DNA of 64,000 bases from NCBI GenBank assembly GCA_025965975.1, contig JAOPVX010000230.1, positions 35,398 through 99,397 on the forward strand. The letters are read 5' to 3'. The DNA comes from Mycobacterium sp. (lineage in GTDB: Bacteria; Actinomycetota; Actinomycetes; Mycobacteriales; Mycobacteriaceae). The translations under genes were made by a program, and so were the position numbers. Below are positions 9,609-23,393 of the stretch, piece by piece. How positions within the stretch are numbered: position 1 is the stretch's first letter; every line of letters begins with the position of its first letter. The notes under the pieces were generated by a model. The model was not told the DNA's origin. It was given only the letters and a program-made list of their open reading frames with translations, and ran no database searches.

Positions 9609-10979
9609 ATGACCGCCGACGAGCGCGGGAGCGTGGGCGCACCTCCCGCCCGCAGGGCAGGGGGAGAGCCGACATCTGTGGTAATCGTCGGCAGCGGGTT
9701 CACCGGTTTCGAGTGCGCCCGTCATCTGGCCCGAAAGCTGCTTAAGCACAACACCTCGGCCGACATCACGATCATCTCGCCGGTCGACTACATGCTCTAC
9801 ACACCGCTACTGCCCGACGTGGCAGGCGGTGTGGTCGACGCCCGCTTTGTCGCGATTCCACTTGCCAACACGCTGCGGGGCGTGCAGGCGATCCGCGGCA
9901 GGGTCGACGGCGTCGACTTCGACAGGCGTACCGTCACCTTCACCGACCCCGAAGAGCGCTCACGCAGTCTGTCGTGGGATCGCCTGGTCCTCACGCCTGG
10001 TTCGGTGACACGGCTGTTCGACGTGCCAGGTCTCGCAGAGCACGCGCGCGGGCTGAAGTCGACGGCCGAAGCGCTGTACCTGCGCGACCATGTGCTGGAG
10101 CAACTCGAACTGGCCGATGTCGACGACGATCCCGGCCGGGCGGCGGCGCGCCGGACGATTGTGGTCGTTGGTGCGTCGTATTCAGGGACCGAATTGGTCG
10201 CCCAGCTGCGGGCGCTTGCCGATTCGGCCGCCAAACAGATGAACTTCGACCCTGCCGAGGTCAAGTTCGTGTTGATGGACCTGGCCGAACAGGTGATGCC
10301 CGAAGTGGGGGAGAAGCTCGGCGCCGCAGCGATGCGGGTGCTGAAATCGCGTGGCATCGACGTCCGGCTCGGCGTCACACTGAAGGAAGTCCACGCTGAA
10401 CACGTTGTGCTCAGCGACGATGCCCTGATCCGTACTCACACCGTGGCGTGGGTGACCGGAGTGACCGGCGCTCCGCTGATCGAAAAGCTTGGCCTGCCGA
10501 CCGAAAAGGGCCGGCTGAAGGTGCAGACCGACCTGCAGGTGCCCGGCCATCCGGAGGTGTTCTCCGCCGGGGATGCCGCCGCGGTGCCCGACGTCACCCA
10601 ACCCGGCAAGATCACCCCACCGACGGCGCAGCACGCGACCCGGCAGGGAAAAGTGTTGGCGCACAACGTCGCCGCCAGCCTCGGCTACGGCAAGACGAAG
10701 AACTACAAGCACCGCAACATGGGGTTGGTGGTCGACCTCGGCCCCCGCTACGCCGTCGCCAACCCGCTCAACATCTCGCTGTCAGGGTTCCCCGCCAAGG
10801 CCGTCACCCGCGCCTACCATCTGTATGCGATTCCGCGCTTCGTCAACCGCTGGGCCGTGTCGCTGGCCTACCTGACCGACGCGTTCTTCGATCGTTCGGT
10901 GGTCTCGATGGGCCTGTCCTCGCAGGAGGATGCGCGGTTCTCCGCCAGCGAGGGCATCCCGATGCCCAAACCGGACTAA
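9609..10979 (+). CDS. NDH-2-like FAD-dependent oxidoreductase (Rv1812c-like)
   Basis: A 456-residue (or 433-residue) pyridine-nucleotide-disulfide-type flavoprotein. It has an N-terminal FAD site VVIVGSGFTG, a second dinucleotide site VVVGASYSGTELVAQL, the FAD-ribityl motif FSAGDAAAVPD, and the TPPTAQHATRQG helix of type II NADH dehydrogenases. It probably passes electrons from NAD(P)H to a quinone or small acceptor at the membrane. Start choice is open: ATG 9609 begins with the 18 bases atgaccgccgacgagcgc also found at the 20.8-kb junction repeat, whereas GTG 9678 has a GGGGGAGA ribosome site and begins right at the FAD motif. I favour 9678 biologically but list the longer frame. Confidence 0.88.
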   Translation: MTADERGSVGAPPARRAGGEPTSVVIVGSGFTGFECARHLARKLLKHNTSADITIISPVDYMLYTPLLPDVAGGVVDARFVAIPLANTLRGVQAIRGRVDGVDFDRRTVTFTDPEERSRSLSWDRLVLTPGSVTRLFDVPGLAEHARGLKSTAEALYLRDHVLEQLELADVDDDPGRAAARRTIVVVGASYSGTELVAQLRALADSAAKQMNFDPAEVKFVLMDLAEQVMPEVGEKLGAAAMRVLKSRGIDVRLGVTLKEVHAEHVVLSDDALIRTHTVAWVTGVTGAPLIEKLGLPTEKGRLKVQTDLQVPGHPEVFSAGDAAAVPDVTQPGKITPPTAQHATRQGKVLAHNVAASLGYGKTKNYKHRNMGLVVDLGPRYAVANPLNISLSGFPAKAVTRAYHLYAIPRFVNRWAVSLAYLTDAFFDRSVVSMGLSSQEDARFSASEGIPMPKPD

Positions 10980-11653
10980 TCCTCGTCGGCGTAGCGGGCC
11001 AATTCGAGATGGCTGCGGGCGCGCAGTCGCGGTGTCGCGCTGTCCGGCATGCCGAGCACCCTGATGCATGCATCCGCAACGTGTTCTGGCAGTTTCCCTC
11101 GTTCTGGGCCCGGCCGTTTGGTCCACATGTTGACCAGCGACTCCACCAATCGGAACGGCAGATCGGCGGCCGCCTCGTCGACGCCGGTGTCCGCGACGAT
11201 GGCCTTGCTCAGCGCCAGATAGTGCAGCCGCAGCCGCTCCCGGTCCGACCAGAACGGCTCGAGGTGCGCCCCCCGCAGTTCGGGCTGCAGGTACAGCGCG
11301 CCCAGGTTCCAGCGGCCATCCAGCAGCTGGCGGCCGTCGAACAGAGCCAGGGCATGCAGATGCTCGGGCGCGCTCATCGCGGGCTCGGTGCCCGCCAGGC
11401 CGTCGATGATCGTCAGCGTCGGCGTCACCGTCTGACTGAGCAGGGCGCACAGGATGTCGTCCTTGGTCTTGAAGTAGTGATACAGCGAGGCCTGACGTAT
11501 ACCGACGGCCTCGGCGATGGTGCGGGTCGAGGTGTTGGTGTAGCCCAGGGTCGTGAAAAGTTCGCCCGCGGCGTCGAGGATCTCGTCACGTGCCGTCGTC
11601 CCCGGTCGCCGCTGGGTCGTCAACCGCGGGCGGCCGGCACGAGTGATCGACAT
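10976..11653 (-). CDS. amtR: AmtR-type TetR nitrogen regulator
   Basis: A 225-residue TetR protein starting at MSITRAGRPRL. The HTH (residues ~25-70) reads AGELFTTLGYTNTST, then EAVGIRQASLYHYF, very close to the corynebacterial/mycobacterial nitrogen regulator AmtR; the centre WNLGALYLQPEL and ERLRLHYLALSKAIV also fit. Two copies of the AmtR motif CTGTC-N4-GACAG lie in the intergenic region that separates it from the ureide/ABC operon, so it probably represses both itself and that operon under nitrogen excess. An upstream GTG at 11698 would sit inside the first operator and is not chosen. It overlaps the NDH-2-like gene tail to tail by 4 bp. Confidence 0.85.
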   Translation of the reverse strand: MSITRAGRPRLTTQRRPGTTARDEILDAAGELFTTLGYTNTSTRTIAEAVGIRQASLYHYFKTKDDILCALLSQTVTPTLTIIDGLAGTEPAMSAPEHLHALALFDGRQLLDGRWNLGALYLQPELRGAHLEPFWSDRERLRLHYLALSKAIVADTGVDEAAADLPFRLVESLVNMWTKRPGPERGKLPEHVADACIRVLGMPDSATPRLRARSHLELARYADED

Positions 11654-11685
11654 CTCCCCATCGTGGCCCACTGAACTGCATAAAT

Positions 11686-11711
11686 GCGTTTCTGTCACAC
11701 GACAGAAACGC
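11686..11711. promoter_or_regulatory. AmtR box 1 (perfect 11-bp inverted repeat)
   Basis: A perfect inverted repeat with 11-bp arms around ACAC; its core is CTGTC-ACAC-GACAG. The core equals the AmtR consensus CTGTC-N4-GACAG reported for M. smegmatis. It lies 33 bp before the amtR ATG, so autoregulation is expected. Confidence 0.85.
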
Positions 11712-11745
11712 GGGACACGAATCGGTTACGCAGCGCCGGTGTTTG

Positions 11746-11761
11746 GTTACGCCAGCGACAC
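11746..11761. promoter_or_regulatory. Possible GlnR box
   Basis: The sequence GTTAC-GCCAGC-GACAC fits the mycobacterial GlnR pattern GNNAC-N6-GNNAC. It lies between the two AmtR boxes upstream of the transporter/ureide operon. The motif is short and degenerate, so its support comes mainly from context: nitrogen-related genes and an AmtR neighbour. Confidence 0.45.
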
Positions 11762-11786
11762 CTACCGCCCCGCCACGCCATGAAAA

Positions 11787-11800
11787 CTGTCAAGTGACAG
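11787..11800. promoter_or_regulatory. AmtR box 2
   Basis: The sequence CTGTC-AAGT-GACAG is a perfect match to CTGTC-N4-GACAG. It ends 23 bp before the ATG of the ABC ATPase gene, a position suited to repression of the operon. It shares its arms with box 1, centre-to-centre 95 bp. Confidence 0.85.
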
Positions 11801-11823
11801 GCCGGGGGTGCTAGGGAGCGTGG

Positions 11824-13782
11824 ATGAGTAGCGCAGTATCCGAGGTCGACGCGCAGTCGTCGAGCCCGGTGCACGGCGCTGCGCTGGTGGCGGCGATCAC
11901 CGACCTGCACGTCACGTTCCGCCGCAACGGCAGTGACGTGCACGCGCTTCGCGGGGTGTCCCTCGACATCGCGCCCGGCGAGATCCTCGGCCTGGTCGGC
12001 GAATCGGGGTCCGGCAAGACCGTCCTCGGGTTCACCATGCTCGGTCTGCTGTCGCACGCCCGGGTGCAGGGCTCGGTGAAAGTGGCGGGCACCGACATGG
12101 TGACCGGCGACGCGAAAACGCTGCGCAAGGTGCGCCGCCTCGACCTCGGCGCCATCTTCCAGGACCCGATGACGTCCCTGAACCCGACCATGCGGATCGG
12201 CAAGCAAGTGGCCGAGGCCGCGGGCAGCGAAGAGGAGGCGCTCAAGCTGCTCACCGCGGTCGGCATCCCGGAACCCAAGCGCCGGTTCCGGGCGTACCCG
12301 CACGAGCTGTCCGGTGGGCTGCGGCAGCGGGTGATGATCGCCATCGCGATCGCAGGCAACCCGGAGTTGATCATCGCCGACGAACCGACCACGGCTCTCG
12401 ACGTCACAGTGCAGGCGCAGGTCCTTCGGCTGCTTCAGCGGTTGCGCGCCGAAATCGGTTGCAGCATCGTGCTGATCACCCACGACCTCGGGGTAGCCGC
12501 GCAGATCGCGGATCGCATCGCGGTGCTCTACGCCGGCCGCATCGCCGAAATCGGGCCGACGGCAGAAGTTCTCGGCCAGCCCGCCCATCCCTACACCCAT
12601 GGACTGCTGCGCTCCAGGCTGACCCTTGATACCGCCCGGCACCGCAAACTCGCAGCGCTGGCTGGTGCGGTGCCAAGCCCGGTGGACCCGCTGCCTGGCT
12701 GTGCGTTCGCCCCTCGATGCGTGGTGGCCAGCCCGGCATGTGAGGCAACCCCTCCCGACCCGACCACGATCGCCCCCGGCCGGGTCAGCGCCTGCATCGT
12801 GCCGTTCGAAGCGGTGTCCGCAGAACTCGGCTCGCGCCTTACCACCACCACCGAGGACATCGAGCCGGAATCAGAGTCCACCGAAACATCCGAGCCGCCA
12901 GCGGTGGTGCTCCATGAGGCGGTCAAGGTCTTCGGCAAACTTCAAGCGTTGCGTGGCATTTCGCTGACCGTCGCCCACGGCGAATCGGTTGCGTTGGTCG
13001 GCGAGAGCGGATCAGGCAAATCCACGCTCCTGCGGGTCGTCGCGGGCCTTGAGAAACCGAGCTCGGGGACCATCGAGCTGGCCGGTGGCCAACGGCCACA
13101 GATGGTGTTCCAGGATGCGGGCGCGTCGCTGACGCCGTGGTTGTCCGTCGGCGAGCTGATCGCTGAGCGGTTGCGCGGAAACGGCATGTCCCGCAGCCAA
13201 AGACGGGATGTGGTGGCGCAAGTGCTGCAGCGTGTCGGCCTGCCGCTGGACATCGCGAAGTCACGGGCAGGCCAGCTCTCCGGTGGTCAGCGCCAGCGGG
13301 TGTCGCTGGCCCGGGCGACCGTGGTGCCGCCGTCGGTGCTGCTGTGCGACGAGCCCACCAGTGCGCTCGACGTCTCCCTTGCCGCCTCGGTGCTCAACCT
13401 CATCGGCGATCTTCGCCGCACCCTTGACATGTCGGTGGTGTTCGTGACGCACGACCTTTCGGTCGCGCGCGTGGTCGCCGACCGCATCGCCGTCATGTAC
13501 CTCGGACGCGTCGTCGAGATCGGGCCCGCCGACGACGTCATCAACAATCCGGTGCACCCCTACACCCAGGCGCTTGTCGACTCGATCCCGGACCTCGGGC
13601 GCGAATCACGGGTGTTGCCTGGCGAACCCGCAAGCCCGCTGTCCCCGCCGACCGGCTGCGCGTTCCATCCACGCTGTCCGATCGCCGTCGAAACGTGCTC
13701 CGACAGCCAGCTCGATGTCCGGCTCGAGGGGGCACCGGGTAGTCCGCATCAAGTCGCCTGTATCGAGCGGAAGGCGAGCTGA
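11824..13782 (+). CDS. Fused OppD-OppF-type ABC transporter ATPase
   Basis: A 652-residue protein with two complete peptide/nickel-type ATPase domains. Domain 1 has Walker A GESGSGKT (residues 59-66), signature LSGGLRQRV and an oligopeptide C-terminal cysteine motif GCAFAPRC. Domain 2 has Walker A GESGSGKS (~393-400), signature LSGGQRQRV and GCAFHPRCP. It supplies both nucleotide-binding domains for the importer whose permeases and binding protein follow. The neighbouring catabolic genes suggest a small nitrogen compound such as allantoin or a related ureide rather than a peptide; the substrate is inference. It is the first gene after the AmtR boxes, with AGGGAGCG as ribosome site. Confidence 0.92.
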   Translation: MSSAVSEVDAQSSSPVHGAALVAAITDLHVTFRRNGSDVHALRGVSLDIAPGEILGLVGESGSGKTVLGFTMLGLLSHARVQGSVKVAGTDMVTGDAKTLRKVRRLDLGAIFQDPMTSLNPTMRIGKQVAEAAGSEEEALKLLTAVGIPEPKRRFRAYPHELSGGLRQRVMIAIAIAGNPELIIADEPTTALDVTVQAQVLRLLQRLRAEIGCSIVLITHDLGVAAQIADRIAVLYAGRIAEIGPTAEVLGQPAHPYTHGLLRSRLTLDTARHRKLAALAGAVPSPVDPLPGCAFAPRCVVASPACEATPPDPTTIAPGRVSACIVPFEAVSAELGSRLTTTTEDIEPESESTETSEPPAVVLHEAVKVFGKLQALRGISLTVAHGESVALVGESGSGKSTLLRVVAGLEKPSSGTIELAGGQRPQMVFQDAGASLTPWLSVGELIAERLRGNGMSRSQRRDVVAQVLQRVGLPLDIAKSRAGQLSGGQRQRVSLARATVVPPSVLLCDEPTSALDVSLAASVLNLIGDLRRTLDMSVVFVTHDLSVARVVADRIAVMYLGRVVEIGPADDVINNPVHPYTQALVDSIPDLGRESRVLPGEPASPLSPPTGCAFHPRCPIAVETCSDSQLDVRLEGAPGSPHQVACIERKAS

Positions 13783-13783
13783 C

Positions 13784-14650
13784 ATGGCGATCGCACTGCC
13801 GGCAGGCACGTGGTCACGGGGCAGGGTACGACTACTGTCGCTGCCGAAATCCTCGCCGATGCTGATGAATTGGGTCGCCGTCTCGTTGGTGTTCGTGGTC
13901 ACGGTCGTGGCAGTGGCCGTGCCGCTCATCTCTCCTCACGATCCTCTGGTTCCTGCCGGCATGCCGTTGCAGGCGCCGGGCAAAGGCGGGTTCCTTCTCG
14001 GCACTGACGCCATCGGCCGCGACATCCTGAGCCGGGTTCTCTACGGCGTCCGAGCGAGCTGGTTTGCGGCGCTGGTGGTCGTCGCGGTCGGATTGTTCAT
14101 CGGCGGACTCATCGGGCTGATCGCCGGTTCTGTTGGCGGCTGGATCGACAGCCTGCTGATGCGGATCACCGACGGGTTCCTGTCATTGCCCGCGCCCGTG
14201 CTGGCGATCGCGGTGGTCGCCGCGCTCGGCCCCGGCTTCGTCCACACGCTGATCGCGGTGTCGATCGTGTGGTGGCCGTTCTACGCGAGGCTGGTGCGCG
14301 GTGAAGTGGCCCGGCTCGCCGCCCGTCCGCACATCGAGGCCGCGAGGCTTGCCGGAGTCGGCCCGATTCGATTGGCCAGCCGTCATCTGCTGCCCGGCGC
14401 GGTGCCCAACTCCTTGGTGGCCGCCAGCCTCGACATCGGCACCCTGATCCTCACGCTGGCGGCGCTGTCGTTCCTTGGCCTTGGTCAAGCGGCCCCCGCG
14501 CCGGAGCTCGGGGCGGATACCGCTCGCAACTTGACGTATTTCCTTCAGCAGTGGTGGGTCCCTGTGATGCCGGGTCTCGCGGTCCTTGTCCTTGCCCTTG
14601 CCGCCAACGTGGCGGGCGACGGCCTGCGCAATCTGATGAAGACGAGCTAG
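13784..14650 (+). CDS. DppC/OppC-type ABC permease
   Basis: A 288-residue inner-membrane permease. It has an N-terminal membrane anchor (MNWVAVSLVFVVTVVAVAV), the DppC motif FLLGTDAIGRDILSRVLYG and an EAA loop EAARLAGVGPIRLASRH, with five to six membrane segments in total. The start is the ATG one base after the ATPase stop. It forms a heterodimeric channel with the next gene product. Confidence 0.92.
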   Translation: MAIALPAGTWSRGRVRLLSLPKSSPMLMNWVAVSLVFVVTVVAVAVPLISPHDPLVPAGMPLQAPGKGGFLLGTDAIGRDILSRVLYGVRASWFAALVVVAVGLFIGGLIGLIAGSVGGWIDSLLMRITDGFLSLPAPVLAIAVVAALGPGFVHTLIAVSIVWWPFYARLVRGEVARLAARPHIEAARLAGVGPIRLASRHLLPGAVPNSLVAASLDIGTLILTLAALSFLGLGQAAPAPELGADTARNLTYFLQQWWVPVMPGLAVLVLALAANVAGDGLRNLMKTS

Positions 14651-15664
14651 GTGCCAGGCATGCGGAATTTCGTCCTGACCCGCGTCGGCGCCATGATCGT
14701 CATCCTCATCGCCCTGATCGCGGTGATGTTTGTGCTGCAGCACATTTCGCCAATGGACCCGGTCAAGGCGCAACTCGGCGCTAACGCCTCGGCTGAGGCC
14801 GTCGCGGCCCATCGGCACGCGCTCGGGCTGGACCAGCCGATGCTCAACCAGTTCTGGAACTACCTGACCGGGGCCGCCCACGGCGACCTTGGCACCTCCT
14901 ATCGCACCAGGCACCCGGTGAGTAGCGACCTCGGCGACTTCTTCCCTGCGACACTCGAGCTGGCGATGTACGGTCTTGGCCTTGCGCTGATCCTGGCCGG
15001 GCTGTTGGCGTTCGGCACGACGCTGAAGTGGCCGGGCGCGGGTGTGCTGCGGGCCGTACTGTTCACCGGCGCAGCGGCACCGATGTTTCTGCTCGGCATC
15101 GTCGGGCTGATCGTGTTCTACCAGAGGCTGGGTTGGGTGCCCGCGAACGGCAGGATCAGTGTGCCGAATCCTCCGACAGGACCCACAGGGATGCTGACCG
15201 TCGACGGGCTGCTCGCCGGGCGGCTCGACGTCGTCACCGACGCGCTGCACCACTTGATCCTGCCGGCCGTGGTGATCGCCCTCGGCCCTGCGGTCGCGAT
15301 CGGACGCGTCCTGCGATCCAGCCTGTTGACCGACTCCAACAGCGACTACGCGAGAACGGCACGGGCCAAAGGACTTTCGGAAGGCCGGATCATGGCCGGC
15401 CACGTGCTGCGCAACTCCGTCGGCGGGGCGTTGTCGATGACAGGGCTGCAGGTCGGCCTGATGTTCTCCGGCGTGCTGGTCGTCGAGCAGGTATTCGGTT
15501 GGCCCGGAATCGGTCAGTACATCGCGCAAAGCATTCCGGTGGCCGACTTTCCCGCGATCGCGGGCGTCACGCTGATGCTTGGCGTGCTCTACGTCGCCAT
15601 CAACACGGCGGTCGACCTATTGCAGGCAGCCGCCGATCCACGAATAACCGTAGGAGGAGGTTAG
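14651..15664 (+). CDS. DppB/OppB-type ABC permease
   Basis: A 337-residue permease with the DppB N-terminus (MRNFVLTRVGAMIVILIALI), the motif ALGLDQPMLNQFWNYL, and an EAA loop TARAKGLSEGRIMAGHVLRN. About six membrane helices are evident. The GTG at 14651 directly follows the upstream stop; an ATG at 14660 is an equally good start. The gene order ATPase, DppC, DppB, hydrolase, binding protein is unusual in having an enzyme inserted before the binding protein. Confidence 0.92.
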   Translation: MPGMRNFVLTRVGAMIVILIALIAVMFVLQHISPMDPVKAQLGANASAEAVAAHRHALGLDQPMLNQFWNYLTGAAHGDLGTSYRTRHPVSSDLGDFFPATLELAMYGLGLALILAGLLAFGTTLKWPGAGVLRAVLFTGAAAPMFLLGIVGLIVFYQRLGWVPANGRISVPNPPTGPTGMLTVDGLLAGRLDVVTDALHHLILPAVVIALGPAVAIGRVLRSSLLTDSNSDYARTARAKGLSEGRIMAGHVLRNSVGGALSMTGLQVGLMFSGVLVVEQVFGWPGIGQYIAQSIPVADFPAIAGVTLMLGVLYVAINTAVDLLQAAADPRITVGGG

Positions 15665-16324
15665 GTGCCAACACAGCCACTGATCGTGGGCAACCCCGTG
15701 CTGGTTGTCATCGACATCCAACAGGGCGGCGCAATGCCCGTGGCAGAGGTGGGAATTCCCCACATGTCCGGGCACGCCGAGCGTGTCGAGCGGGCCGAGA
15801 AGCTGGTTGCGGCGGCGCGCGCCGCCGGCGTGCCGGTGGTGTTCTTCCAGGAGGTGCACCGGCCCAGCGGGGTGGACTTCGGTCGAGAACTGGACGGCAC
15901 CGAAGGTGTGCACTGTATCGAAGGCCAGCCGGGCACCGAGCTCGAGCCGTCGCTGCGGCCGCTGCCCGACGAGTTTCATATCGTCAAGCGGCGCTATTCG
16001 GGTTTCATCGGAACGGATTTCGAGATCGTGTTGCGGGGGCTTCGGGCATCGACGCTGATCCTGATCGGCGGTTTGACCGACGTCTGTGTGCATTACACGT
16101 TCGCCGACGCGCATCAGCGCGACTACTACGTCCGCGTCGTCACCGACTGTGTCGGTGGCTCATCGCAATACCTGCACGACGCGGCGCTGGCCGCCATGGA
16201 GTACCTGCAGACCGGCGCGATGCGCACCACCGAAGAGATCCTCTCCGCATTTGATGAATGTCGCCGCCGTCGCGGCTCCGCTCAACAGCCCGAACAACCC
16301 GTCCTCGAAGGAGCAACTCGATGA
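15665..16324 (+). CDS. Isochorismatase-family cysteine hydrolase
   Basis: A 219-residue cysteine hydrolase with the full catalytic triad: Asp17 (VVIDIQQ), Lys108 (HIVKRRYSGF) and Cys141 in GGLTDVCVHYT, plus the nonproline cis-peptide region. The family hydrolyses C-N bonds in N-carbamoylsarcosine, ureidoacrylate, nicotinamide and similar amides, so in this operon a ureide or carbamoyl amide is a likely substrate. The GTG start has a strong GTAGGAGG ribosome site. The 3' end overlaps the binding-protein gene by 4 bp. Confidence 0.88.
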   Translation: MPTQPLIVGNPVLVVIDIQQGGAMPVAEVGIPHMSGHAERVERAEKLVAAARAAGVPVVFFQEVHRPSGVDFGRELDGTEGVHCIEGQPGTELEPSLRPLPDEFHIVKRRYSGFIGTDFEIVLRGLRASTLILIGGLTDVCVHYTFADAHQRDYYVRVVTDCVGGSSQYLHDAALAAMEYLQTGAMRTTEEILSAFDECRRRRGSAQQPEQPVLEGATR

Positions 16325-17898
16325 GCAAACGACTACTGGCCATTGCGGCGGCGGGCGCCGCCGCAATGCTGACCTTGTCGTCCTGTGGTGGCTCGGGTTC
16401 TGGCGGCGGCACGCCGAACGCGGCGCCGACCGACAAGGTGCTGCACCTGTCGTTCCTGCAGGACCCCGGCCAGCCGCCGGATCCCGACGTGTACTACGCC
16501 GGGCAGGGACTGCTGCTCACGACCAACCTCTACGAGGGTCTGTTGCAGTTCAAGGGCGGCCAGGGCAAGGCCGAGCTCGAGCCACTGCTGGCCACCGAGT
16601 ACACCGCCTCGCCCGACAACAAGGTCTTCACGCTCAAGCTGCGTGAGGGCGTGAAGTTCCACGACGGGACACCGTTCAAGTCCGACGCGGTCAAGGCGTC
16701 GTTCGACCGCCGACTGGCCGTCAACGGTGGACCCGCCTACATGGTCAAGGACATCGACTCCATTACGACGCAAGGCGATTACGGCGTCACGATCACGTTG
16801 AAGTCACCCAACTCGGAGTTCCTCGATTACCTCGGATCCGCCTACGGTCCGCGGATGCTGAGCCCGACCGGGCTGCAGAAGAATGGCGGCTCGGACTTCG
16901 CGCAGAACTACCTCACCACCCACGACCTCGGGACCGGTCCGTACACGCTGACCGACGCGCAGGTCGGCTCGCACTATGGGATGGCCTCGTTCGGAGACTA
17001 CTGGGGTCCGAAGCCGTACTTCGAGAAGGTCGACCTGCCGGTCATCACCGACACCTCGGCGCAACAACTCCAGTTCAACAACGGCCAGCTCGCCGCGATC
17101 CTGCATGACCTGCCGTCGTCGGCGGTCGGGCAGTACCTGAACAACGCCAAGTACTCGCACTACTCGTTGCCGACGATGATGGCGGACTTCATCTACATCA
17201 ACCCCACCAAGGGCATGATGACGGACCAGGCGACGCGGACCGCGGTGATGAATGCCATCGACGTCGACCAGCTCGTCAAGCAGACGTATTTTGGCCGAGG
17301 CAAGATCGGCGCACAGATGTACCCGCCGTACGTGCTCGCCGCCGAGTACGGGAAACAGGCTCTGACACATGATCCCTCGGCGCTGACCAAGATCGCTGCG
17401 GGACTGCCCGCCGATCAGAAGTCGGTCACCATCGGCTTCGACACGAGCAATCCGGACAATCAGCTGATCAGCAACCTCGTTCAGACTCAGCTCGCGGCGG
17501 CAGGGGTCACCGCGAAGGTACAGGGCTATCCCACTTCGCAGATCTACGCCTGGATCGGCAACGCCGCGGCAGCGCCGGACATCCTCGCCAATCTGGTGTG
17601 GCCGGACGCTCCTTCGCCGTACACCTGGGGCCACATCTCGTGGGACCCCGATGGCGGGATCAATTACCTGAGCTGCTCGTCGCCGAAGGTCAGCGCCGCT
17701 CTGGCACAGGGGCTGCCAAACGGCGCGCCGCAACCGTACTCGGACGCGGGTACGGCAGCCGAAGAGACCGGTTGCTGGTTGAACGTCGCCGACATCGACG
17801 ACTTCATGGTCGCCCAGCCGTGGCTGAAGGGAGTCGAGCAGGCGCACGCGGTGTCGAACCCGAACTCGCTGCGGATCGCGGCGCTGTCGGTGGGCTGA
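16321..17898 (+). CDS. ABC substrate-binding lipoprotein (SBP family 5)
   Basis: A 525-residue extracytoplasmic binding protein. The signal peptide ends in lipobox LSSC (Cys22), so it is a membrane-anchored lipoprotein. The family-5 pattern is seen in LLLTNLYEGLLQF, KVFTLKLREGVKFHDGTPF and NDLGTGPY-like DLGTGPYTL. It should deliver the substrate to the DppB/DppC-type permeases upstream. It overlaps its neighbours on both sides (ATGA at 16321 and at 17896-17900). Confidence 0.93.
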   Translation: MSKRLLAIAAAGAAAMLTLSSCGGSGSGGGTPNAAPTDKVLHLSFLQDPGQPPDPDVYYAGQGLLLTTNLYEGLLQFKGGQGKAELEPLLATEYTASPDNKVFTLKLREGVKFHDGTPFKSDAVKASFDRRLAVNGGPAYMVKDIDSITTQGDYGVTITLKSPNSEFLDYLGSAYGPRMLSPTGLQKNGGSDFAQNYLTTHDLGTGPYTLTDAQVGSHYGMASFGDYWGPKPYFEKVDLPVITDTSAQQLQFNNGQLAAILHDLPSSAVGQYLNNAKYSHYSLPTMMADFIYINPTKGMMTDQATRTAVMNAIDVDQLVKQTYFGRGKIGAQMYPPYVLAAEYGKQALTHDPSALTKIAAGLPADQKSVTIGFDTSNPDNQLISNLVQTQLAAAGVTAKVQGYPTSQIYAWIGNAAAAPDILANLVWPDAPSPYTWGHISWDPDGGINYLSCSSPKVSAALAQGLPNGAPQPYSDAGTAAEETGCWLNVADIDDFMVAQPWLKGVEQAHAVSNPNSLRIAALSVG

Positions 17899-18725
17899 TG
17901 GCTCACGTTTCCAAGGTCCGCAGGATAGTTCTGCTGACACTCGGCTGGGAGGAGCTGCCGAAGTCCGTATCGGTCTACGGCGCTCCGCCCGAAGAGCGGA
18001 TGCGCGAGCCGGTGCCAGGGGTGCTGCTGCAGACCGACGGCGGCTGGGTGCTGCTTGACACCGGGTTCAACACCGCGCTCATCCGCGATCCCGCGCTGTA
18101 CCGGCGGTTCTACCCGACCGTCGAGTACATCCCTGTGCTGCCGGGACCGGGTGAACCGATCGAACAATCGCTGCACGACATCGGCGTCGACATCGACGAC
18201 ATCCACACCGTCGCGGTGAGCCATCTGCACCACGACCATGCCGGCGGCCTGAAACTGTTCGCAGGCAAGGTTCCCGTGCATGCCCAACGCCGCGAAGTCG
18301 AATACGGGCTGTCCAACCATCCCGAGCCGGAGCACAACGCGATCGCGCGCATCGACTTCGACGATCCGCGCATCGAGTGGCAGCTCGCCGACGGCGAAGC
18401 CGAGATCGCCCCTGGTATCACGGCCGTCCCGACCTACGGGCATACCCCTGGGCACCAGAGTTTCGTGGTCGAACTCGACGAGTCGGTCGGCGGCGACGGG
18501 TTCGTATTCGCGTTCGACGCCGCCGACCTGACCGAGAACATCGAGCACGAGTTGGCGATCGGCGGCTACATCGGGGTGACACCCGAGGAAACCGTCGAAC
18601 CCATCCGCAAACTCAAGAGGCTGGCCAAAGAGAAGGGCTACCAACTGATCCCCGGTCACGACCCGCACGTGTGGCCGCAGCTGACCCGCCACTTTCACGA
18701 TCGGTTCGGTCCGGTGGTCGCGTAG
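17898..18725 (+). CDS. Metallo-beta-lactamase-fold hydrolase (AHL-lactonase-like)
   Basis: A 275-residue MBL-fold enzyme with metal motif SHLHHDHAGG (His109, His111, Asp113, His114), the third metal His region in TYGHTPGHQSF, a metal-bridging Asp in FAFDAADLTENI, and IPGHDPHVWP near the end. Overall wording is like the AttM/N-acyl-homoserine lactonase branch, whose members open lactone rings. In an allantoin-type cluster a cyclic-ureide or lactone hydrolysis step is conceivable but not shown. Stop-start overlaps at both ends indicate tight coupling. Confidence 0.85.
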   Translation: MAHVSKVRRIVLLTLGWEELPKSVSVYGAPPEERMREPVPGVLLQTDGGWVLLDTGFNTALIRDPALYRRFYPTVEYIPVLPGPGEPIEQSLHDIGVDIDDIHTVAVSHLHHDHAGGLKLFAGKVPVHAQRREVEYGLSNHPEPEHNAIARIDFDDPRIEWQLADGEAEIAPGITAVPTYGHTPGHQSFVVELDESVGGDGFVFAFDAADLTENIEHELAIGGYIGVTPEETVEPIRKLKRLAKEKGYQLIPGHDPHVWPQLTRHFHDRFGPVVA

Positions 18726-20023
18726 TGGACCTGATTGTCCGGGCCGAGAGGGCGGTCATCGACGGCGAGATCCGGTCGGCCGCTGTGGCGGTGGCCGACG
18801 GCATGATTCGTGCGGTCGGCCCGATCGGCGCGGACTACCCGGCCACCGAACAGATCCGGCTCGGCGAAGCGACGGTACTCCTGCCGGGTTTCGTCGATTC
18901 ACATGTGCACATCAACGAGCCGGGCACCGACTGGGAAGGCTTCGCCACCGCGACGGCGGCCGCTGCGGCTGGCGGCATCACCACCCTTGTCGACATGCCG
19001 CTCGACAGCGACCCGGTGACTACCACGGTCGGCGCGCTGAGCGACAAACAGCAAGCGGCGCAGGGCAACTGCGACGTCGATGTCGCGTTCTGGGGCGGTG
19101 TCGTCCCCGGCAATCTTGCCGGGCTAGGCGATCTGGCCGCCGCAGGCGTGCTGGGCTTCAAGTGCTTTCTCACCGACTCGGGAAACCCGAACTTCCCGGC
19201 CCTGGACGCCGACGAGTTCCGGCGCGCGGTGTCGATGTGCGCCGTCCTTGACGCGGTGCTGCTGGTGCACGCCGAAAGTGAACATGTCATCGAGGGCAGT
19301 CCGCGGCCACGCGGCCGCAGCTATGCGTCGTTTCTGTCGTCGCGGCCCGATGCCTCAGAGGAGCATGCCGTTGCGCTGGTCATCGACGCCGCAAGAGAAA
19401 CGGGTGCGCGGGTCCACGTCGTGCATGTCTCCAGTGCCCGCGTGTTGCCGATGCTCGCCGATGCCAAGCGGTCCGGCGTACGCATCACCGCCGAGACGTG
19501 CCCGCACTATCTGATCTTCGCGGCCGAAGACATCCCCGACGGCGCAACACAGTTCGCGTCGTGCCCGCCCATCCGCGATGGGGACAACCGCAGCCTGCTG
19601 TGGCAGGGGCTGGCCGACGGCACCCTTGACATGATCGTGTCCGACCACTCACCCTGCGCGCCGCCGATGAAGGCCGACGGCGACTTTGGGCGTGTGTTCG
19701 GCGGAATCAGTTCCCTTCAGGTCGGACCGCGGGCCGTGTGGACACACGCCGTCCGGCGCGGTTTCGGGCTGGCGGAGCTGTGTCGGTGGATGTCCGAACA
19801 GCCTGCCGCCCTTGCGGGCCTTGGCGACAGGGGACGCATAGCGGTCGGGCGGCGGGCGGACCTGTGCGTATTCGAACCGGATATCGAGCAGACCGTACAC
19901 GCCGCGACGCTGAGACACCGGCACGCGGTCACGCCCTATGACGGTGCCGTGCTGCGCGGCTCGGTGGTGCAGACCCGGCTGGCGGGCCGCCTCATCTACG
20001 AGCGGGTCGGTCAGCCGGCATGA
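18725..20023 (+). CDS. allB: Allantoinase (AllB-type amidohydrolase)
   Basis: A 432-residue cyclic amidohydrolase. Metal ligands are seen in order: DSHVHINEPG (His60, His62), the carbamylated lysine in GFKCFLTDSG (Lys146), His182 (VHAESE), His234 (VVHVSS) and Asp307 (SDHSPC). The HINEPG-x4-WEGF block and MPLDSDP are hallmarks of allantoinases rather than dihydropyrimidinases. It should hydrolyse allantoin to allantoate. The GTG start overlaps the upstream TAG, and the stop overlaps the next gene by 4 bp. Confidence 0.88.
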   Translation: MDLIVRAERAVIDGEIRSAAVAVADGMIRAVGPIGADYPATEQIRLGEATVLLPGFVDSHVHINEPGTDWEGFATATAAAAAGGITTLVDMPLDSDPVTTTVGALSDKQQAAQGNCDVDVAFWGGVVPGNLAGLGDLAAAGVLGFKCFLTDSGNPNFPALDADEFRRAVSMCAVLDAVLLVHAESEHVIEGSPRPRGRSYASFLSSRPDASEEHAVALVIDAARETGARVHVVHVSSARVLPMLADAKRSGVRITAETCPHYLIFAAEDIPDGATQFASCPPIRDGDNRSLLWQGLADGTLDMIVSDHSPCAPPMKADGDFGRVFGGISSLQVGPRAVWTHAVRRGFGLAELCRWMSEQPAALAGLGDRGRIAVGRRADLCVFEPDIEQTVHAATLRHRHAVTPYDGAVLRGSVVQTRLAGRLIYERVGQPA

Positions 20024-20772
20024 GACTGCTCGTCCTTAACCCGAACACATCGGAGTCGATGACCGCCGAGATCGCCGCGGCCGCTGCCGGGGTCGCCGCG
20101 CAGGAAACCGAGATCATCGCGCGCAATCCGCGTTTCGGCGCGACGGCGATCGACTCGGCCGGCGAAAGCTACCTGTCCGCGGTCGGCGTGATGGATCTGG
20201 TGGCCGCCATGCTCGCAGCGGGCGAATTCGACTATGACGCAGTGATTCTGGCCGGGTTCGGCGAACACGGCAAGGATGCGCTGCAGGAGATGCTCGCCGT
20301 GCCCGTGCTGGACATCGCCGAGGCCGCGGCTGCGGTCGCGCACCTGATCGGACGGCGCTTCTCGGTGGTCACCACGTTGGCCCGCTCGATACCGCCCATC
20401 GAGGACAGGTTGATGCTCGCGGGCCTCGATGCACACTGTGCGTCGGTGCGGGCGTGCGGGCTCGGTACCGCGCAGGTGGACGCTGACCCTGCCGGCGCCG
20501 TGCAGGCGATCGTCGACGAGGCGGCCAAGGCGGTCGCCGAGGACGGCGCCGACGTGATCTGCCTGGGATGCGCCGGGATGGCGGGTGTCACCGCGGCGAT
20601 CACCGCCAAGCTTGGTGTGCCCGCCGTCGACGGCGTCGCCGCCGCGGTGGCGCTGGCCCAGGCGTTGGTCGGGCTTGGGCTGAGCACAAGCAAGGCAGGC
20701 GTATACGCCGAGGGGCCGGACAACCCGCGCAGTCACTGGCCACTCTCGACGTCGTTGGGCCTTGACCGATGA
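20020..20772 (+). CDS. Hydantoin/allantoin racemase relative lacking first Cys
   Basis: A 250-residue member of the Asp/Glu/hydantoin racemase superfamily. The N-terminus RLLVLNPNTSESM is typical of hydantoin and allantoin racemases. The second catalytic cysteine is present in ICLGCAGM (Cys184). The first, normally in an ACFGDPG-type motif near residue 79, is replaced by glycine (LAGFGEHG, Gly79). Two-base racemisation needs both cysteines, so the protein may be a one-cysteine enzyme (arylmalonate decarboxylase has a comparable Gly/Cys arrangement) or may act otherwise. Position between allantoinase and allantoicase argues for a ureide role. Confidence 0.82.
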   Translation: MRLLVLNPNTSESMTAEIAAAAAGVAAQETEIIARNPRFGATAIDSAGESYLSAVGVMDLVAAMLAAGEFDYDAVILAGFGEHGKDALQEMLAVPVLDIAEAAAAVAHLIGRRFSVVTTLARSIPPIEDRLMLAGLDAHCASVRACGLGTAQVDADPAGAVQAIVDEAAKAVAEDGADVICLGCAGMAGVTAAITAKLGVPAVDGVAAAVALAQALVGLGLSTSKAGVYAEGPDNPRSHWPLSTSLGLDR

Positions 20773-20834
20773 CCGCCGACGAGCGCTCGCGCGAGGAGCC
20801 CATATGCGAGCGCTCGCGCGAGGAGCCGATATGA
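20769..20834 (+). other. Junction micro-ORF spanning tandem repeat
   Basis: A 21-codon frame (MTADERSREEPICERSREEP plus Ile) starts within the racemase stop (ATGA) and ends in the TGA that overlaps the allantoicase ATG (ATGA). It consists almost wholly of the two 27-bp repeats, so its likely role is translational coupling rather than a functional peptide. Confidence 0.5.
20781..20834 (+). repeat. Tandem 27-bp junction repeat (2 copies)
   Basis: Two adjacent 27-bp units, each starting GAGCGCTCGCGCGAGGAGCC and ending ATATG plus one base, differ at two positions (20781-20807 and 20808-20834). Each unit carries an AGGAG ribosome-site core followed by an ATG, so both 20804 and 20831 could start allantoicase. 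The core GAGCGCTCGCGCGA recurs at 30.5 kb and in degenerate form at 60.2 kb. Confidence 0.9.
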
Positions 20835-21835
20835 AGGTGGATCTCGCGTCGCGCGCCCTCGGCGGCAGCGTCGTCGCCGCCAGCGATGAATCGTTCGGCG
20901 TCAAGGAACGCTTGATCGACCCTGGCGAACCGGCGTTCGTGCCTGGCACGTACGACGTGCGCGGTGAGGTCGTCGACGGCTGGGAGACCCGCAGGCATGC
21001 CGACGTCGACTGGGCGATCGTGCGGCTCGGAGTCGGTGGCCGGCTGCGCGCGATCGATGTCGACACCCGCTTCTTCTCCGGCAATCATCCGACCGGCTGC
21101 CGCATCGATGCCTGCGTCCTCGACACCGTCGCCGACCCGACCGCCGCCGGGGTGCACTGGACGACGATCGTCGACAGCGCCGCGTTGAAACCCGATTCCC
21201 ACAACGTCTTTGCCGTCGACGATCCGCGGCGCTATACGCACCTGCGACTGCAGCTGGAATCCGACGGGGGAGTCGCGCGGCTACGCGCCTATGGCGAGGT
21301 CGTCCCTGACCCGGCGCTGTGGGCAGGCGTCACCGTCGAGGTGTCGGGCGTCGAGCAGGGCGGCCGGGTCGAATGGTCCAGCGACAGCTTCTATTCCGAT
21401 GCTGGCGCGCTGATCACGCCGGACCGGCCACGCAACATGGGCGACGGGTGGGAGGCCAGGCGGCGCCGCGATATCGGCCCCGACACCCACGACGCGGTGA
21501 TGATCTCGTTCGCGGTGCCCGCCGATCTGCAGCGAGTCGAGATCGACACCAGCCGCTTCGTGTTCAACGCATCAACCGAGGTCGCGGTGCTTGGCAGCCG
21601 CGCGTTGCCATGTGGCGAACACGGCTGGGCGCTGGTGCCGTTCGACGTGGAAGTGCTGGCCCGCACCCGCATCGCAGCCGATTCGCGGCACGTCTTCGTC
21701 GTGGACGCCGCGGACATCACCGCGCTGCGGGTGCAGGCCTATCCCGACGGCGGAATCGCCCGCGTCCGGGCCTTCGGCCGGCCCACCGACCACGGAATCG
21801 CCTTGCTGCAATCCATCTGGGAGGGGTCGGCGTGA
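20831..21835 (+). CDS. alc: Allantoicase
   Basis: A 334-residue protein with two homologous allantoicase repeats: DGWETRRHADVDWAIVRLG, then HLRLQLESDGGVARLRAYGE, and again DGWEARRRRDIGPDTHDAV, then LRVQAYPDGGIARVRAFG. The enzyme cleaves allantoate to ureidoglycolate and urea. The start at MKVDLASRALGG follows the second 27-bp repeat, which provides AGGAG; an in-frame ATG at 20804 lies in the first repeat. Its stop overlaps the next start (GTGA). Confidence 0.92.
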   Translation: MKVDLASRALGGSVVAASDESFGVKERLIDPGEPAFVPGTYDVRGEVVDGWETRRHADVDWAIVRLGVGGRLRAIDVDTRFFSGNHPTGCRIDACVLDTVADPTAAGVHWTTIVDSAALKPDSHNVFAVDDPRRYTHLRLQLESDGGVARLRAYGEVVPDPALWAGVTVEVSGVEQGGRVEWSSDSFYSDAGALITPDRPRNMGDGWEARRRRDIGPDTHDAVMISFAVPADLQRVEIDTSRFVFNASTEVAVLGSRALPCGEHGWALVPFDVEVLARTRIAADSRHVFVVDAADITALRVQAYPDGGIARVRAFGRPTDHGIALLQSIWEGSA

Positions 21836-22359
21836 GCACCCGAAGCACCGTGCAGATGACCGAATGCAGCGGACTGTGGCAGCGCACGTTGCTCATCGAC
21901 GGCGACGGGTCACGCGACGTCAGCACCGGTGTGGCATGGCTGCAGGGAATCACCGCGTACGCGGACACCCGGGGCTTTGCCGGCCGACTCAGCCAGCACG
22001 ACGACGTCTTCGCGTGGCAGCGGCTCATCGATGTCGAGCCGCAGGGGCCGTTCCCCGACGAGGGGCGGATGCGGTGGGAGGCGGGCGTTTTGATCGAACG
22101 CGGCGTGCACCAGAACTACGCCGAACATTGGGTCAGGCGGGACGGCCCGGCCGCACCGTGCTGGGCGCTGTTCGGAGCGAACGCGATCCTGCTGCGCGCC
22201 GGTGCGCAATTCGGCTGGGCGGACCGGCGCGGTGTTGCGCTTGGCACAATCGGCGATCCGCAGTGGACCGCGCTCAATCCGCACATGAATGGTAGTGACC
22301 TGGTGGCCAACGGCGTCCGATGGAACATTGAGGATAGCGAAGGAGATGTGGATCTATGA
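21832..22359 (+). CDS. Unassigned protein of ureide operon (lipocalin/HRI1-like?)
   Basis: A 175-residue protein, GTG start inside the allantoicase stop. The pattern CSGLWQRTLLIDGDG, VAWLQGITAYADTRG and the GxW-like ends suggest a small antiparallel beta barrel of lipocalin or HRI1 type; this is only a weak impression. It does not look like ureidoglycolate lyase (AllA), the activity expected after allantoicase. Its conserved place between allantoicase and the oxygenase suggests a role in ureide or purine handling. Confidence 0.6.
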   Translation: MSTRSTVQMTECSGLWQRTLLIDGDGSRDVSTGVAWLQGITAYADTRGFAGRLSQHDDVFAWQRLIDVEPQGPFPDEGRMRWEAGVLIERGVHQNYAEHWVRRDGPAAPCWALFGANAILLRAGAQFGWADRRGVALGTIGDPQWTALNPHMNGSDLVANGVRWNIEDSEGDVDL

Positions 22360-23393
22360 GTGGGGCAACGTCATTCACATCGGTGCCGATCGTCGACATC
22401 AGCGGACTGAACTCGCCGGAGCCGGCGGAACGCGAACGAGTGGCGGGCGAGATCGGTAGCGCGGCCCGCGAGGTCGGGTTCTTCTATGTGAGCGGCGCCG
22501 GTGTCGACGACGCGTTGTTCGAGCGCACGTTGGCAGCGACGAGGCAGTTCTTCGCGTTGCCGCTCGAGGAGAAGATGCGCTCCTACATCGGGCTGTCCAC
22601 CTGCCATCGGGGCTACGTGCCGGTCGGCGAGGAGGGCGTGGAGACGGGAACACCAGATCTCAAGGAGGCGTTCGACACCGCGCTGGATCTGCCCGCCGAC
22701 GACCCCGACCATCTGGCGGGCAACCCGATGCTTGGCCCGAACGTGTGGCCCGACCTGCCGGGGTTCGCCGAGACGGTGACGGAGTACTACCACGCGGTGC
22801 TCGACGTCGGGCACCGGCTGCTGTCGGCGTTCGCGGTGGCGCTGAAAGAGGACCCCGACACGTTCTCCCGGCACGCGACCAAGACGCCGAGCCAGTTGCG
22901 GCTGGTGCACTATCCGTACAACCCCGAAGCGCAGGACGGTCAGGGTATCGGCGCGCACACGGACTACGAGTGCTTCACGCTGCTCAAACCCACCGCGCCG
23001 GGCCTTGAGGTGCTCAACGGCGCCGGTGAGTGGATCGACGTGCCGCCGGTGCCCGGCACGTTCGTCGTAAACATCGGCGACATGCTGGAACTGTGGACCA
23101 ACGGTGCATACGTGGCGACCAGCCACCGGGTGCGCAAGGTGCCCGAAGAGCGGTATTCGTTCCCGCTGTTCTTCAACGTCGATTACCACACCGAGGTGAA
23201 ACCGTTGCCGCAGTTCGCCTCTCGCGACGGAAAGGAGCGCCCCACGCTGCGCGCGGGTGAGCACCTGTTCGCCCAGACCGCTCAGACGTTCGGCTATCTG
23301 CGCAACCGCGTCGAGACCGGTGAGCTGGTGCTTCCCGACGGCTCGCTGGAAATCGGACAGTTCGGACAGCAGGCGTTGCAGAACCGGGGATAG
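22356..23393 (+). CDS. 2-oxoglutarate/Fe(II) oxygenase, isopenicillin-N-synthase type
   Basis: A 345-residue non-haem iron oxygenase. The DIOX_N part is VPIVDISGLNS, AAREVGFFYVSGAGVDD. The iron triad is His201-x-Asp203 (GAHTDYECF) and His257 (TSHRV), with the 2-oxoglutarate-binding Arg266-x-Ser268. It likely hydroxylates or demethylates a small molecule; in this cluster a purine or ureide is a reasonable guess (thymine and xanthine are oxidised by other 2OG enzymes). ATGA overlap with the previous gene and an AGGAGA ribosome site mark it as the last gene of the AmtR-controlled run. Confidence 0.88.
   Translation: MSGATSFTSVPIVDISGLNSPEPAERERVAGEIGSAAREVGFFYVSGAGVDDALFERTLAATRQFFALPLEEKMRSYIGLSTCHRGYVPVGEEGVETGTPDLKEAFDTALDLPADDPDHLAGNPMLGPNVWPDLPGFAETVTEYYHAVLDVGHRLLSAFAVALKEDPDTFSRHATKTPSQLRLVHYPYNPEAQDGQGIGAHTDYECFTLLKPTAPGLEVLNGAGEWIDVPPVPGTFVVNIGDMLELWTNGAYVATSHRVRKVPEERYSFPLFFNVDYHTEVKPLPQFASRDGKERPTLRAGEHLFAQTAQTFGYLRNRVETGELVLPDGSLEIGQFGQQALQNRG

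What the first reader, a model, noticed from the sequence alone, without database searches (positions are those of the whole stretch)
11686..23393. AmtR-controlled ureide (allantoin-like) uptake and catabolism island
An AmtR-type regulator diverges from a run of coupled genes: fused OppDF ATPase, DppC, DppB, isochorismatase-like hydrolase, lipoprotein SBP, MBL hydrolase, allantoinase, racemase-like protein, allantoicase, an unassigned protein and a 2OG oxygenase. Nearly all junctions are ATGA/GTGA overlaps, so it is one unit. Seen: gene order, motifs, two AmtR boxes. Known: allantoinase and allantoicase act in sequence and release urea; M. smegmatis AmtR controls urea degradation. Inferred: the transporter and extra enzymes bring in and process a cyclic ureide or purine derivative. 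Urate oxidase and ureidoglycolate lyase are absent here.
Basis: partly seen in the sequence, partly recalled or inferred. Interest (0 to 1): 0.85.

Follow-up and report, generated by a model that had tools for sequence, protein, structure and literature searches.

The report
Mycobacterial guanidine-linked demethylation and allantoin operon
This soil-mycobacterium gene cluster does hold a real allantoin-breakdown set, but its conserved heart looks like an importer plus a two-enzyme system that strips methyl groups from a nitrogen-rich guanidine- or urea-like compound, with the allantoin genes as an optional add-on.

Summary
The gene list is right. The allantoin reading fits three of the operon's eleven genes: AllB and allantoicase pass curated cut-offs and the racemase shares the Gly/Glu signature of allantoin racemase. 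This triad is optional: in 68 loci of at least 14 kb it is complete in 39, partial in 7, absent in 22, while regulator, importer, isochorismatase, MBL, the "unassigned" protein and 2OG oxygenase are all present in 65. Loss looks recurrent. The conserved core points to guanidine. In L093-L095 relatives of the unassigned-protein/2OG pair follow a carboxylase and an allophanate hydrolase, fused to the latter. UAAP2 occurs in 68 of 76 core genomes and 49 of 221 others. In 8 of 8 inspected of 16 linked genomes the carboxylase operon adjoins the core with the AmtR-type regulator between; paired palindromes stand at both heads in 4 and at one head in 4. The best plasmid matches of MBL and 2OG share one guanidine-riboswitch locus. 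By analogy with MgdH/MgdL (PMC12508155) the pair should release N-methyl groups as formaldehyde. The substrate is unproven.

The parts
10976..11698 (-). AmtR-paralogue TetR regulator (local)
   Evidence: TetR_N; best PDB 5e57 M. smegmatis AmtR 181.5 bits; the orthologue is on C77, 342.5 bits
11689..11708 (.). operator-like palindrome 1, TTTCTGTC-N4-GACAGAAA
   Evidence: overlaps the listed regulator start
11787..11800 (.). operator-like palindrome 2, CTGTC-N4-GACAG, 95 bp from the first
   Evidence: such pairs also stand before UAAP1 in L093, L094, L182, L183, L185, L186, L188 and L189
11824..13782 (+). fused OppDF-type ABC ATPase
   Evidence: two ABC_tran and two oligo_HPY stretches
13784..14650 (+). 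DppC-type permease
   Evidence: BPD_transp_1; start
14651..15664 (+). DppB-type permease
15665..16324 (+). isochorismatase-fold amidohydrolase
   Evidence: PF00857; biuret hydrolase model 73 bits, far under its cut-off 370
16321..17898 (+). SBP family 5 lipoprotein
   Evidence: PF00496; signal peptide and lipobox cysteine read from the sequence
17898..18725 (+). metallo-beta-lactamase-fold hydrolase
   Evidence: PF00753; 33% to a protein encoded downstream of a Guanidine-I riboswitch in L070
18725..20023 (+). allantoinase AllB (optional triad)
   Evidence: TIGR03178 487 bits, cut-off 358
20020..20772 (+). allantoin-type racemase (optional triad)
   Evidence: 5lfd allantoin racemase E 5e-69, Gly/Glu signature shared
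20762..21835 (+). allantoicase (optional triad); true start may be 20804 or 20831
   Evidence: TIGR02961 284 bits, cut-off 278
21832..22359 (+). MgdL-like candidate hemiaminal lyase (the 'unassigned' protein)
   Evidence: no Pfam, NCBIfam, PHROGs or PDB match; invariant D45-x-R47; profile chain through AtzF-fused domains to proteins encoded directly after 2OG genes
22356..23393 (+). MgdH-like 2OG/Fe(II) oxygenase, candidate N-demethylase
   Evidence: DIOX_N and 2OG-FeII_Oxy; 58-60% to the 2OGs of carboxylase loci L093-L095

Best explanation
It is a nitrogen-scavenging operon under a local AmtR paralogue, made of a conserved core and an optional allantoin triad. Core: the SBP-OppDF-DppBC importer brings in a small N-methylated guanidino or ureido compound, and the MBL-fold and isochorismatase-fold enzymes hydrolyse it. 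The 2OG oxygenase hydroxylates an N-methyl (or N-alkyl) carbon, and the MgdL-like protein splits the resulting hemiaminal into formaldehyde and guanidine or urea. The product is then used by the guanidine-carboxylase pathway (UAAP1/UAAP2, carboxylase, AtzF), encoded next door in some relatives and in part on contig C77 here, or by urease. Triad: allantoin racemase, allantoinase and allantoicase convert allantoin to urea and ureidoglycolate, and supply the only AllB found in this genome. Shown by computation: gene identities, core against triad, palindromes, physical and phyletic linkage to the carboxylase genes. Inferred: enzyme activities, order of steps, substrate.
For: 1) 65 of 68 loci of at least 14 kb hold all nine core genes; triad complete in 39, partial in 7, absent in 22. 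Tree of the core: 10 changes of triad presence, at least 9 forced by well-supported branches. 2) L093-L095: UAAP2, carboxylase, AtzF with the unassigned-protein domain continuing in its frame, then a 2OG at 58-60% to the window's; in L094 UAAP1, UAAP2, carboxylase and AtzF pass curated cut-offs. 3) UAAP2 in 68 of 76 core genomes against 49 of 221 others, Fisher 5e-26, not corrected for phylogeny; in 16 it lies within 17 kb of the core. Eight of these 16 were inspected and all 8 show carboxylase operon, regulator, core. 4) The top-ranked plasmid matches of MBL and of 2OG both lie in L070, which has two Guanidine-I and one Guanidine-II riboswitch, one directly upstream of SBP-MBL. 5) The unassigned family keeps D45-x-R47 in 33 of 33 aligned close relatives (33 chosen of 41 loci) and in 12 of 12 of a second set (six divergent, six close), like the catalytic D49/R51 of MgdL (PMC12508155, parts 1-4 of 7 read). 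Profiles link it to proteins of about 295 aa encoded directly after 2OG genes: A1-A3 E 1e-39, A3-A2 E 3e-10; two of those three loci also hold AtzF (L078; L177, with a carboxylase end). 6) 2OGs linked to the unassigned protein form one clade, SH-aLRT 96, quick tree of 23 rows.
Against: No MgdL or MgdH sequence was available, so membership was not tested directly. A1 against A2 directly is weak (prob 30, E 6e-4). The third of the A2 loci (N. capsulatum L179) shows no carboxylase, AtzF or UAAP match, L178 has carboxylase, AtzF and a 2OG but no relative of the protein was recognised there, and in L070 the 2OG's neighbour is a xylose-isomerase-like protein and no relative was found. One mycobacterial locus (L176) keeps importer, isochorismatase and MBL without the pair, one (L171) lacks the isochorismatase, so the parts are separable. 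No guanidine riboswitch in the window or the mycobacterial loci scanned, nor in L078, L177-L179. 8 of 76 core genomes lack UAAP2. Here UAAP2 is on another contig. The carboxylase could prefer urea; the diagnostic Asp/Asn (passage in PMC12186494) was not located. An SBP_bac_5 importer is unusual for so small a ligand.
Confidence: 0.6

Rival explanations
1. Plain allantoin or ureide uptake and catabolism: the importer carries allantoin, AllB, racemase and Alc break it down, and the other enzymes finish the job.
For: The triad is genuine. In 38 of 48 genomes with AllB beside the core it is the only AllB found at E 1e-85. Uricase and OHCU decarboxylase are elsewhere in this genome, so allantoin is probably made here.
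Against: 28 of 76 core genomes have no AllB beside the core (a few cut by contig ends) and 17 of those have none at that threshold; partial remnants are scattered on the tree. It gives no role to the 2OG pair, whose relatives occur with carboxylase and AtzF.
Confidence: 0.15
2. Creatinine or N-methylhydantoin route: MBL opens a cyclic amide, the isochorismatase acts like N-carbamoylsarcosine amidohydrolase, the 2OG pair demethylates.
For: AmtR controls creatine and creatinine genes including cshA and hyuB in C. glutamicum (passages of PMC8864220). Relatives of the pair in L099 sit near M24/Creatinase_N, creatininase-like, GS-III-like and AmtR-like genes, and L098 looks similar.
Against: The creatininase-like protein of L099 is under both model cut-offs and the GS-III match is under its cut-off too. 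No creatinase, creatininase or hydantoinase other than AllB was identified among the operon's proteins. Isochorismatase and MBL reach no specific model.
Confidence: 0.15
3. An oligopeptide or opine importer with unrelated hydrolases co-transcribed by chance.
For: SBP, permeases and ATPase match peptide/nickel importer models.
Against: The nine-gene set is kept at 65 of 68 loci and the paired palindromes recur. A Streptomyces plasmid keeps an SBP (35%), ABC ATPase, two permeases, an isochorismatase (60%) and an AmtR-like TetR (39%) together.
Confidence: 0.05

Closest known systems
[quoted passage not shown]
   Same: 2OG oxygenase beside a protein with a conserved D-x-R; related pairs sit with UAAP2, carboxylase and AtzF in L093-L095 (UAAP1/2 being CgdA/B is recalled)
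   Different: Here AmtR-type control instead of riboswitches; the protein is shorter (175 aa); the operon has its own Opp-type importer, MBL and isochorismatase, no carboxylase inside it, and an allantoin triad
AmtR-controlled msmeg_2184, 2187 and 2189 of Mycobacterium smegmatis (passages of PMC4222082)
   Same: AmtR-family regulator and nitrogen scavenging; a carboxylase operon of related type lies beside the core in some relatives
   Different: That unit is a permease and urea-carboxylase/allophanate-hydrolase type genes (gene functions partly recalled); the passages seen do not mention an operon like this one
Allantoin racemase of PDB 5lfd with AllB and Alc
   Same: Racemase signature, AllB and Alc above cut-offs; allB-racemase-alc also occurs on a Mesorhizobium plasmid at 54, 57 and 50%, without the core
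   Different: Here inserted in or lost from a larger operon; the racemase alone is missing in 5 of 68 loci
C. glutamicum AmtR creatine/creatinine regulon (passages of PMC8864220)
   Same: AmtR governs uptake and breakdown of a methylated guanidino compound; its CshA acts after N-methylhydantoin (isochorismatase fold recalled)
   Different: Different transporter and enzymes

Membership tests
Allantoinase AllB | Score above TIGR03178 cut-off 357.85 | tested here: met
   487.3 bits
Allantoicase | Score above TIGR02961 cut-off 277.9 | tested here: met
   284.2 bits, narrowly; PF03561 241 bits
Allantoin racemase | First catalytic Cys replaced by Gly with Glu three residues on (meaning recalled, not from a call) | tested here: met
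   AGFGEHG aligns with AGYGEHG of 5lfd; 3qvj putative hydantoin racemase has CFGDPG
AmtR orthologue | Best own-genome match to M. smegmatis AmtR 5e57 | tested here: not met
   window 181.5 bits, C77 342.5 bits: a paralogue
AmtR-type operator | Binding of the regulator to the palindromes | not testable with these tools
   Only conservation was seen
MgdL hemiaminal lyase | Sequence similarity to V. boliviensis MgdL | not testable with these tools
MgdL hemiaminal lyase | Catalytic D-x-R pair | tested here: met
   D45-x-R47 invariant in 33 and in 12 aligned sequences; that it is the same pair as D49/R51 is inferred
MgdL hemiaminal lyase | Beta-barrel with the pair inside | not tested
   Structure prediction switched off
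MgdL/MgdH locus | Pair encoded with guanidine-carboxylase genes | tested here: inconclusive
   Met for relatives in L093-L095; for the window type, adjacency to the carboxylase operon in the 8 inspected of 16 linked genomes; in the window's own genome UAAP2 is on another contig
Biuret hydrolase BiuH | NF050097 cut-off 370 | tested here: not met
   73.1 bits
AHL lactonase AttM | NF045700 cut-off 390 | tested here: not met
   112.6 bits
Guanidine-riboswitch regulon | Rfam guanidine riboswitch in the window | tested here: not met
   No match; present in relative L070

The most novel reading that the evidence does not exclude
The MgdH-like oxygenase and MgdL-like lyase form a portable N-dealkylation cassette that bacteria attach to different nitrogen pathways (guanidine carboxylation, a creatinine-like cluster, amidohydrolase clusters and, here, ureides). 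In the window it works with the triad on N-methylated ureides such as methylallantoins or methylurea left from methylated purines, so that methylated purine waste yields urea, formaldehyde and ureidoglycolate under AmtR-type control.
Probability: 0.22. Interest if true: 0.75.

Novelty: new variant of a known kind. Interest (0 to 1): 0.6.

Why it matters
It gives a testable role to an unannotated protein family found in about a quarter of the sampled genus genomes (76 of 297 with strong matches). It suggests that dedicated hemiaminal lyases, reported in 2025 for a methylguanidine pathway, are more widespread. It also changes what AmtR-type regulators in mycobacteria appear to manage, from urea-type genes alone to uptake and demethylation of guanidino or ureido compounds.

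Tried and rejected
AlphaFold was off. A centre outside the own lineage was not accepted by the genome search, so MgdL-bearing Gammaproteobacteria could not be searched; tblastn of the window protein in plasmids found nothing at E 1e-3 and four unconvincing hits at E 10; the L091 relative found nothing at E 1. A single weak hit of the L094 domain (E 0.8) was kept because it lay just after a 2OG homologue. The 297-aa hypothetical of Sphingobium L178 first looked like the same family but aligned to none of the others over more than 83 residues or better than E 0.1. Neighbourhoods of isochorismatase relatives in Rhodobacterales and the unannotated Rhizobium record gave no substrate clue. Kozakia, Klebsiella and Sulfitobacter 2OG loci showed no relative of the protein that I recognised. 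PHROGs gave nothing. Literature: no held paper has allantoinase, allantoicase and Mycolicibacterium together; two hold guanidine, Mycolicibacterium, nitrogen source and carboxylase, none of these in title or abstract (listing only); 'methylallantoin' does not occur in the 14 papers listed; 'guanidine carboxylase' does not occur in the 20 of 65 papers listed. The Asp/Asn test of guanidine against urea carboxylase could not be run. Quality notes: the dppC query was translated out of frame, so its identities there are meaningless; one search repeats the count in frame. ORF picking was a G+C heuristic; it missed AtzF in L188, later found by tblastn, and UAAP2 in L184, L186 and L187, placed there. 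UAAP1 of L093 was not resolved.
Full report
WHAT IS THERE. The window holds a divergent TetR-type regulator (10976-11698, -) and an eleven-gene run, 11824-23393 (+): OppDF, DppC, DppB, isochorismatase fold, SBP family 5 lipoprotein, MBL fold, AllB, racemase, allantoicase, an unassigned 175-aa protein, 2OG oxygenase. Nine of ten internal junctions are an overlap of 4 or 1 bp, an abutment or a 1-bp gap; the tenth depends on the allantoicase start. Four are ATGA/GTGA. The genome is 7.4 Mb in 449 contigs; the nearest named row in the core tree is Mycolicibacterium moriokaense L060.

ALLANTOIN TRIAD. AllB scores 487 bits (cut-off 358) and allantoicase 284 (cut-off 278). The racemase matches allantoin racemase 5lfd at E 5e-69 and shares its Gly-x-x-Glu where 3qvj has Cys; the meaning of that signature is recalled. 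This is the only AllB above cut-off in the held genome, while uricase and OHCU decarboxylase with a second allantoicase lie elsewhere, so the triad probably also serves the cell's own purine breakdown. The allB-racemase-alc order occurs without the core on a Mesorhizobium plasmid at 54, 57 and 50%.

THE TRIAD IS OPTIONAL. The unassigned protein has a match at E 1e-3 in 97 of 297 sampled genus genomes. I took the 76 with strong matches as core genomes; of the other 21, five were inspected (L093-L095, L098, L099). Of the 76, 70 have the isochorismatase within 9 kb, 48 have AllB within 6 kb and 28 do not, a few of these because the contig ends. Of the 48, 38 have no other AllB at E 1e-85; of the 28, 17 have none at all and 11 have one elsewhere. 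I fetched 75 of these loci (all but the window's own) plus two with the isochorismatase but no match of the protein. Of the 68 that are at least 14 kb long, 65 hold all nine core genes; exceptions are L171 (no isochorismatase), L175 (no match of the protein) and L176 (neither pair gene). The triad is complete in 39, partial in 7, absent in 22. On a tree of 78 rows the presence of triad genes needs 10 changes, at least 9 forced, with partial states scattered; with remnants such as 107 residues of AllB in L109 this reads as repeated loss.

REGULATION. CTGTC-N4-GACAG occurs twice in the window, 95 bp apart, at the regulator-oppDF gap, and such a pair, 94 bp apart, is found in L062, L063, L066, L067 and L068. 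Single sites are not informative genome-wide (11 against 14 reversed). The regulator is an AmtR paralogue; the orthologue (342 bits to 5e57) lies on C77 next to two DUF1989 (UAAP-type) proteins and a carboxyltransferase. In M. smegmatis AmtR acts on msmeg_2184, 2187 and 2189 below GlnR (passages of PMC4222082).

THE PAIR AND GUANIDINE. The unassigned protein has no Pfam, NCBIfam, PHROGs or PDB match. Divergent relatives occur elsewhere. In L093, L094 and L095 UAAP2, carboxylase and AtzF come first, the domain continues in the AtzF frame, and the 2OG follows; L094 was checked against NCBIfam. L099 has the pair near nitrilase-like, creatinase-like, creatininase-like, GS-III-like and AmtR-like genes, and L098 looks similar. 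L090 has the pair after two amidohydrolases. L091 has the protein near UAAP1, carboxylase, an AtzF end and an arginase-family protein, without a 2OG seen. D45, R47, W36, Q38, D76, E89, Y96, E98 and W100 never vary in 33 close sequences (chosen from 41 loci) or in a set of 12, six of them divergent. Proteins of about 295 aa that directly follow 2OG genes in Acinetobacter NCu2D-2 (with AtzF and an SMR transporter), Novosphingobium PP1Y (with AtzF and a carboxylase end 5 kb away) and N. capsulatum (no such genes found) join the family by profile: A3-A2 prob 96.8, E 3e-10; A1-A3 prob 100; A1-A2 directly only prob 30. In V. boliviensis, MgdH hydroxylates methylguanidine and MgdL, with essential D49 and R51, splits N-(hydroxymethyl)guanidine (PMC12508155, parts 1-4 of 7 read). 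I infer the same chemistry here. The MgdL sequence itself was not available.

THE CORE AND GUANIDINE. UAAP2 occurs in 68 of 76 core genomes and 49 of the other 221 (Fisher 5e-26; the genomes are related, so this p is too small), including 27 of the 28 without adjacent AllB. In 16 it lies within 17 kb. In the 8 of these inspected, UAAP1-UAAP2-carboxylase-AtzF comes first, then the regulator (75-79% to the window's), then oppDF and the core; UAAP2 in L184, L186 and L187 rests and AtzF in L188. Exact palindromes stand near both operon heads in all 8: as complete pairs at both heads in L182, L183, L185 and L188, and as a pair at one head with single sites at the other in L184, L186, L187 and L189. 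Independently, the top-ranked plasmid matches of the MBL (33%) and of the 2OG (59%) lie in one Paraburkholderia locus, L070, with Guanidine-I riboswitches before UAAP1 and before SBP-MBL and a Guanidine-II before the carboxylase; its 2OG has a xylose-isomerase-like neighbour rather than a relative of the unassigned protein. No guanidine riboswitch was found in the window, in the 12 mycobacterial loci scanned, or in L078 and L177-L179.

HOW IT PROBABLY WORKS. Import by the Opp-type system; hydrolysis by MBL and isochorismatase proteins (order unknown; a second sbp-mbl pair follows the 2OG in L063, L064, L066 and L067, suggesting these two act together); oxidative N-demethylation by the 2OG oxygenase; hemiaminal cleavage by the MgdL-like protein; guanidine or urea to the carboxylase pathway or urease (two strong urease-alpha matches). 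The imported compound is not identified; methylated guanidino compounds (including creatinine-derived ones) and methylated ureides are the leading candidates.

VERDICT. The surprise is that a supposed allantoin operon is, at its conserved heart, a guanidine-linked importer and demethylation module with a candidate new branch of hemiaminal lyases.

Noticed in passing
L093, L094:9072-11528 (-), L095: Allophanate hydrolase continues into an MgdL-like domain in one frame, beside a 2OG oxygenase, in three genus genomes.
   Followed up: partly
L098, L099: Unassigned-protein/2OG pair with a permease, LacI-type regulator, nitrilase-like, M24/Creatinase_N, creatininase-like and GS-III-like genes; L099 also an AmtR-like regulator (43%). 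The protein's frame looks interrupted in L099.
   Followed up: partly
L005:9633-11222 (own contig C285): OHCU decarboxylase and a second allantoicase next to inorganic pyrophosphatase; no AllB match on that contig.
   Followed up: partly
L071 (Streptomyces NBC_00564 plasmid): AmtR-like TetR, amidohydrolase, SBP, ABC ATPase, two permeases, isochorismatase (60%), two phosphotriesterase-family proteins and a RidA-like protein: a different hydrolase set on a similar importer-isochorismatase unit.
   Followed up: partly
Genus AllB set: AllB falls in score classes: those beside the core 462-495 bits when full length, most of those elsewhere 551-571, a few 290-400; possibly different specificities.
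   Followed up: no
L070:8330-10469 (-): Guanidine-I riboswitch directly upstream of an SBP gene and an MBL-fold 'AHL lactonase family' gene, suggesting that this MBL branch acts in guanidine metabolism rather than quorum quenching.
   Followed up: partly
L063, L064, L066, L067: A second sbp-mbl pair follows the 2OG gene in some species.
   Followed up: no
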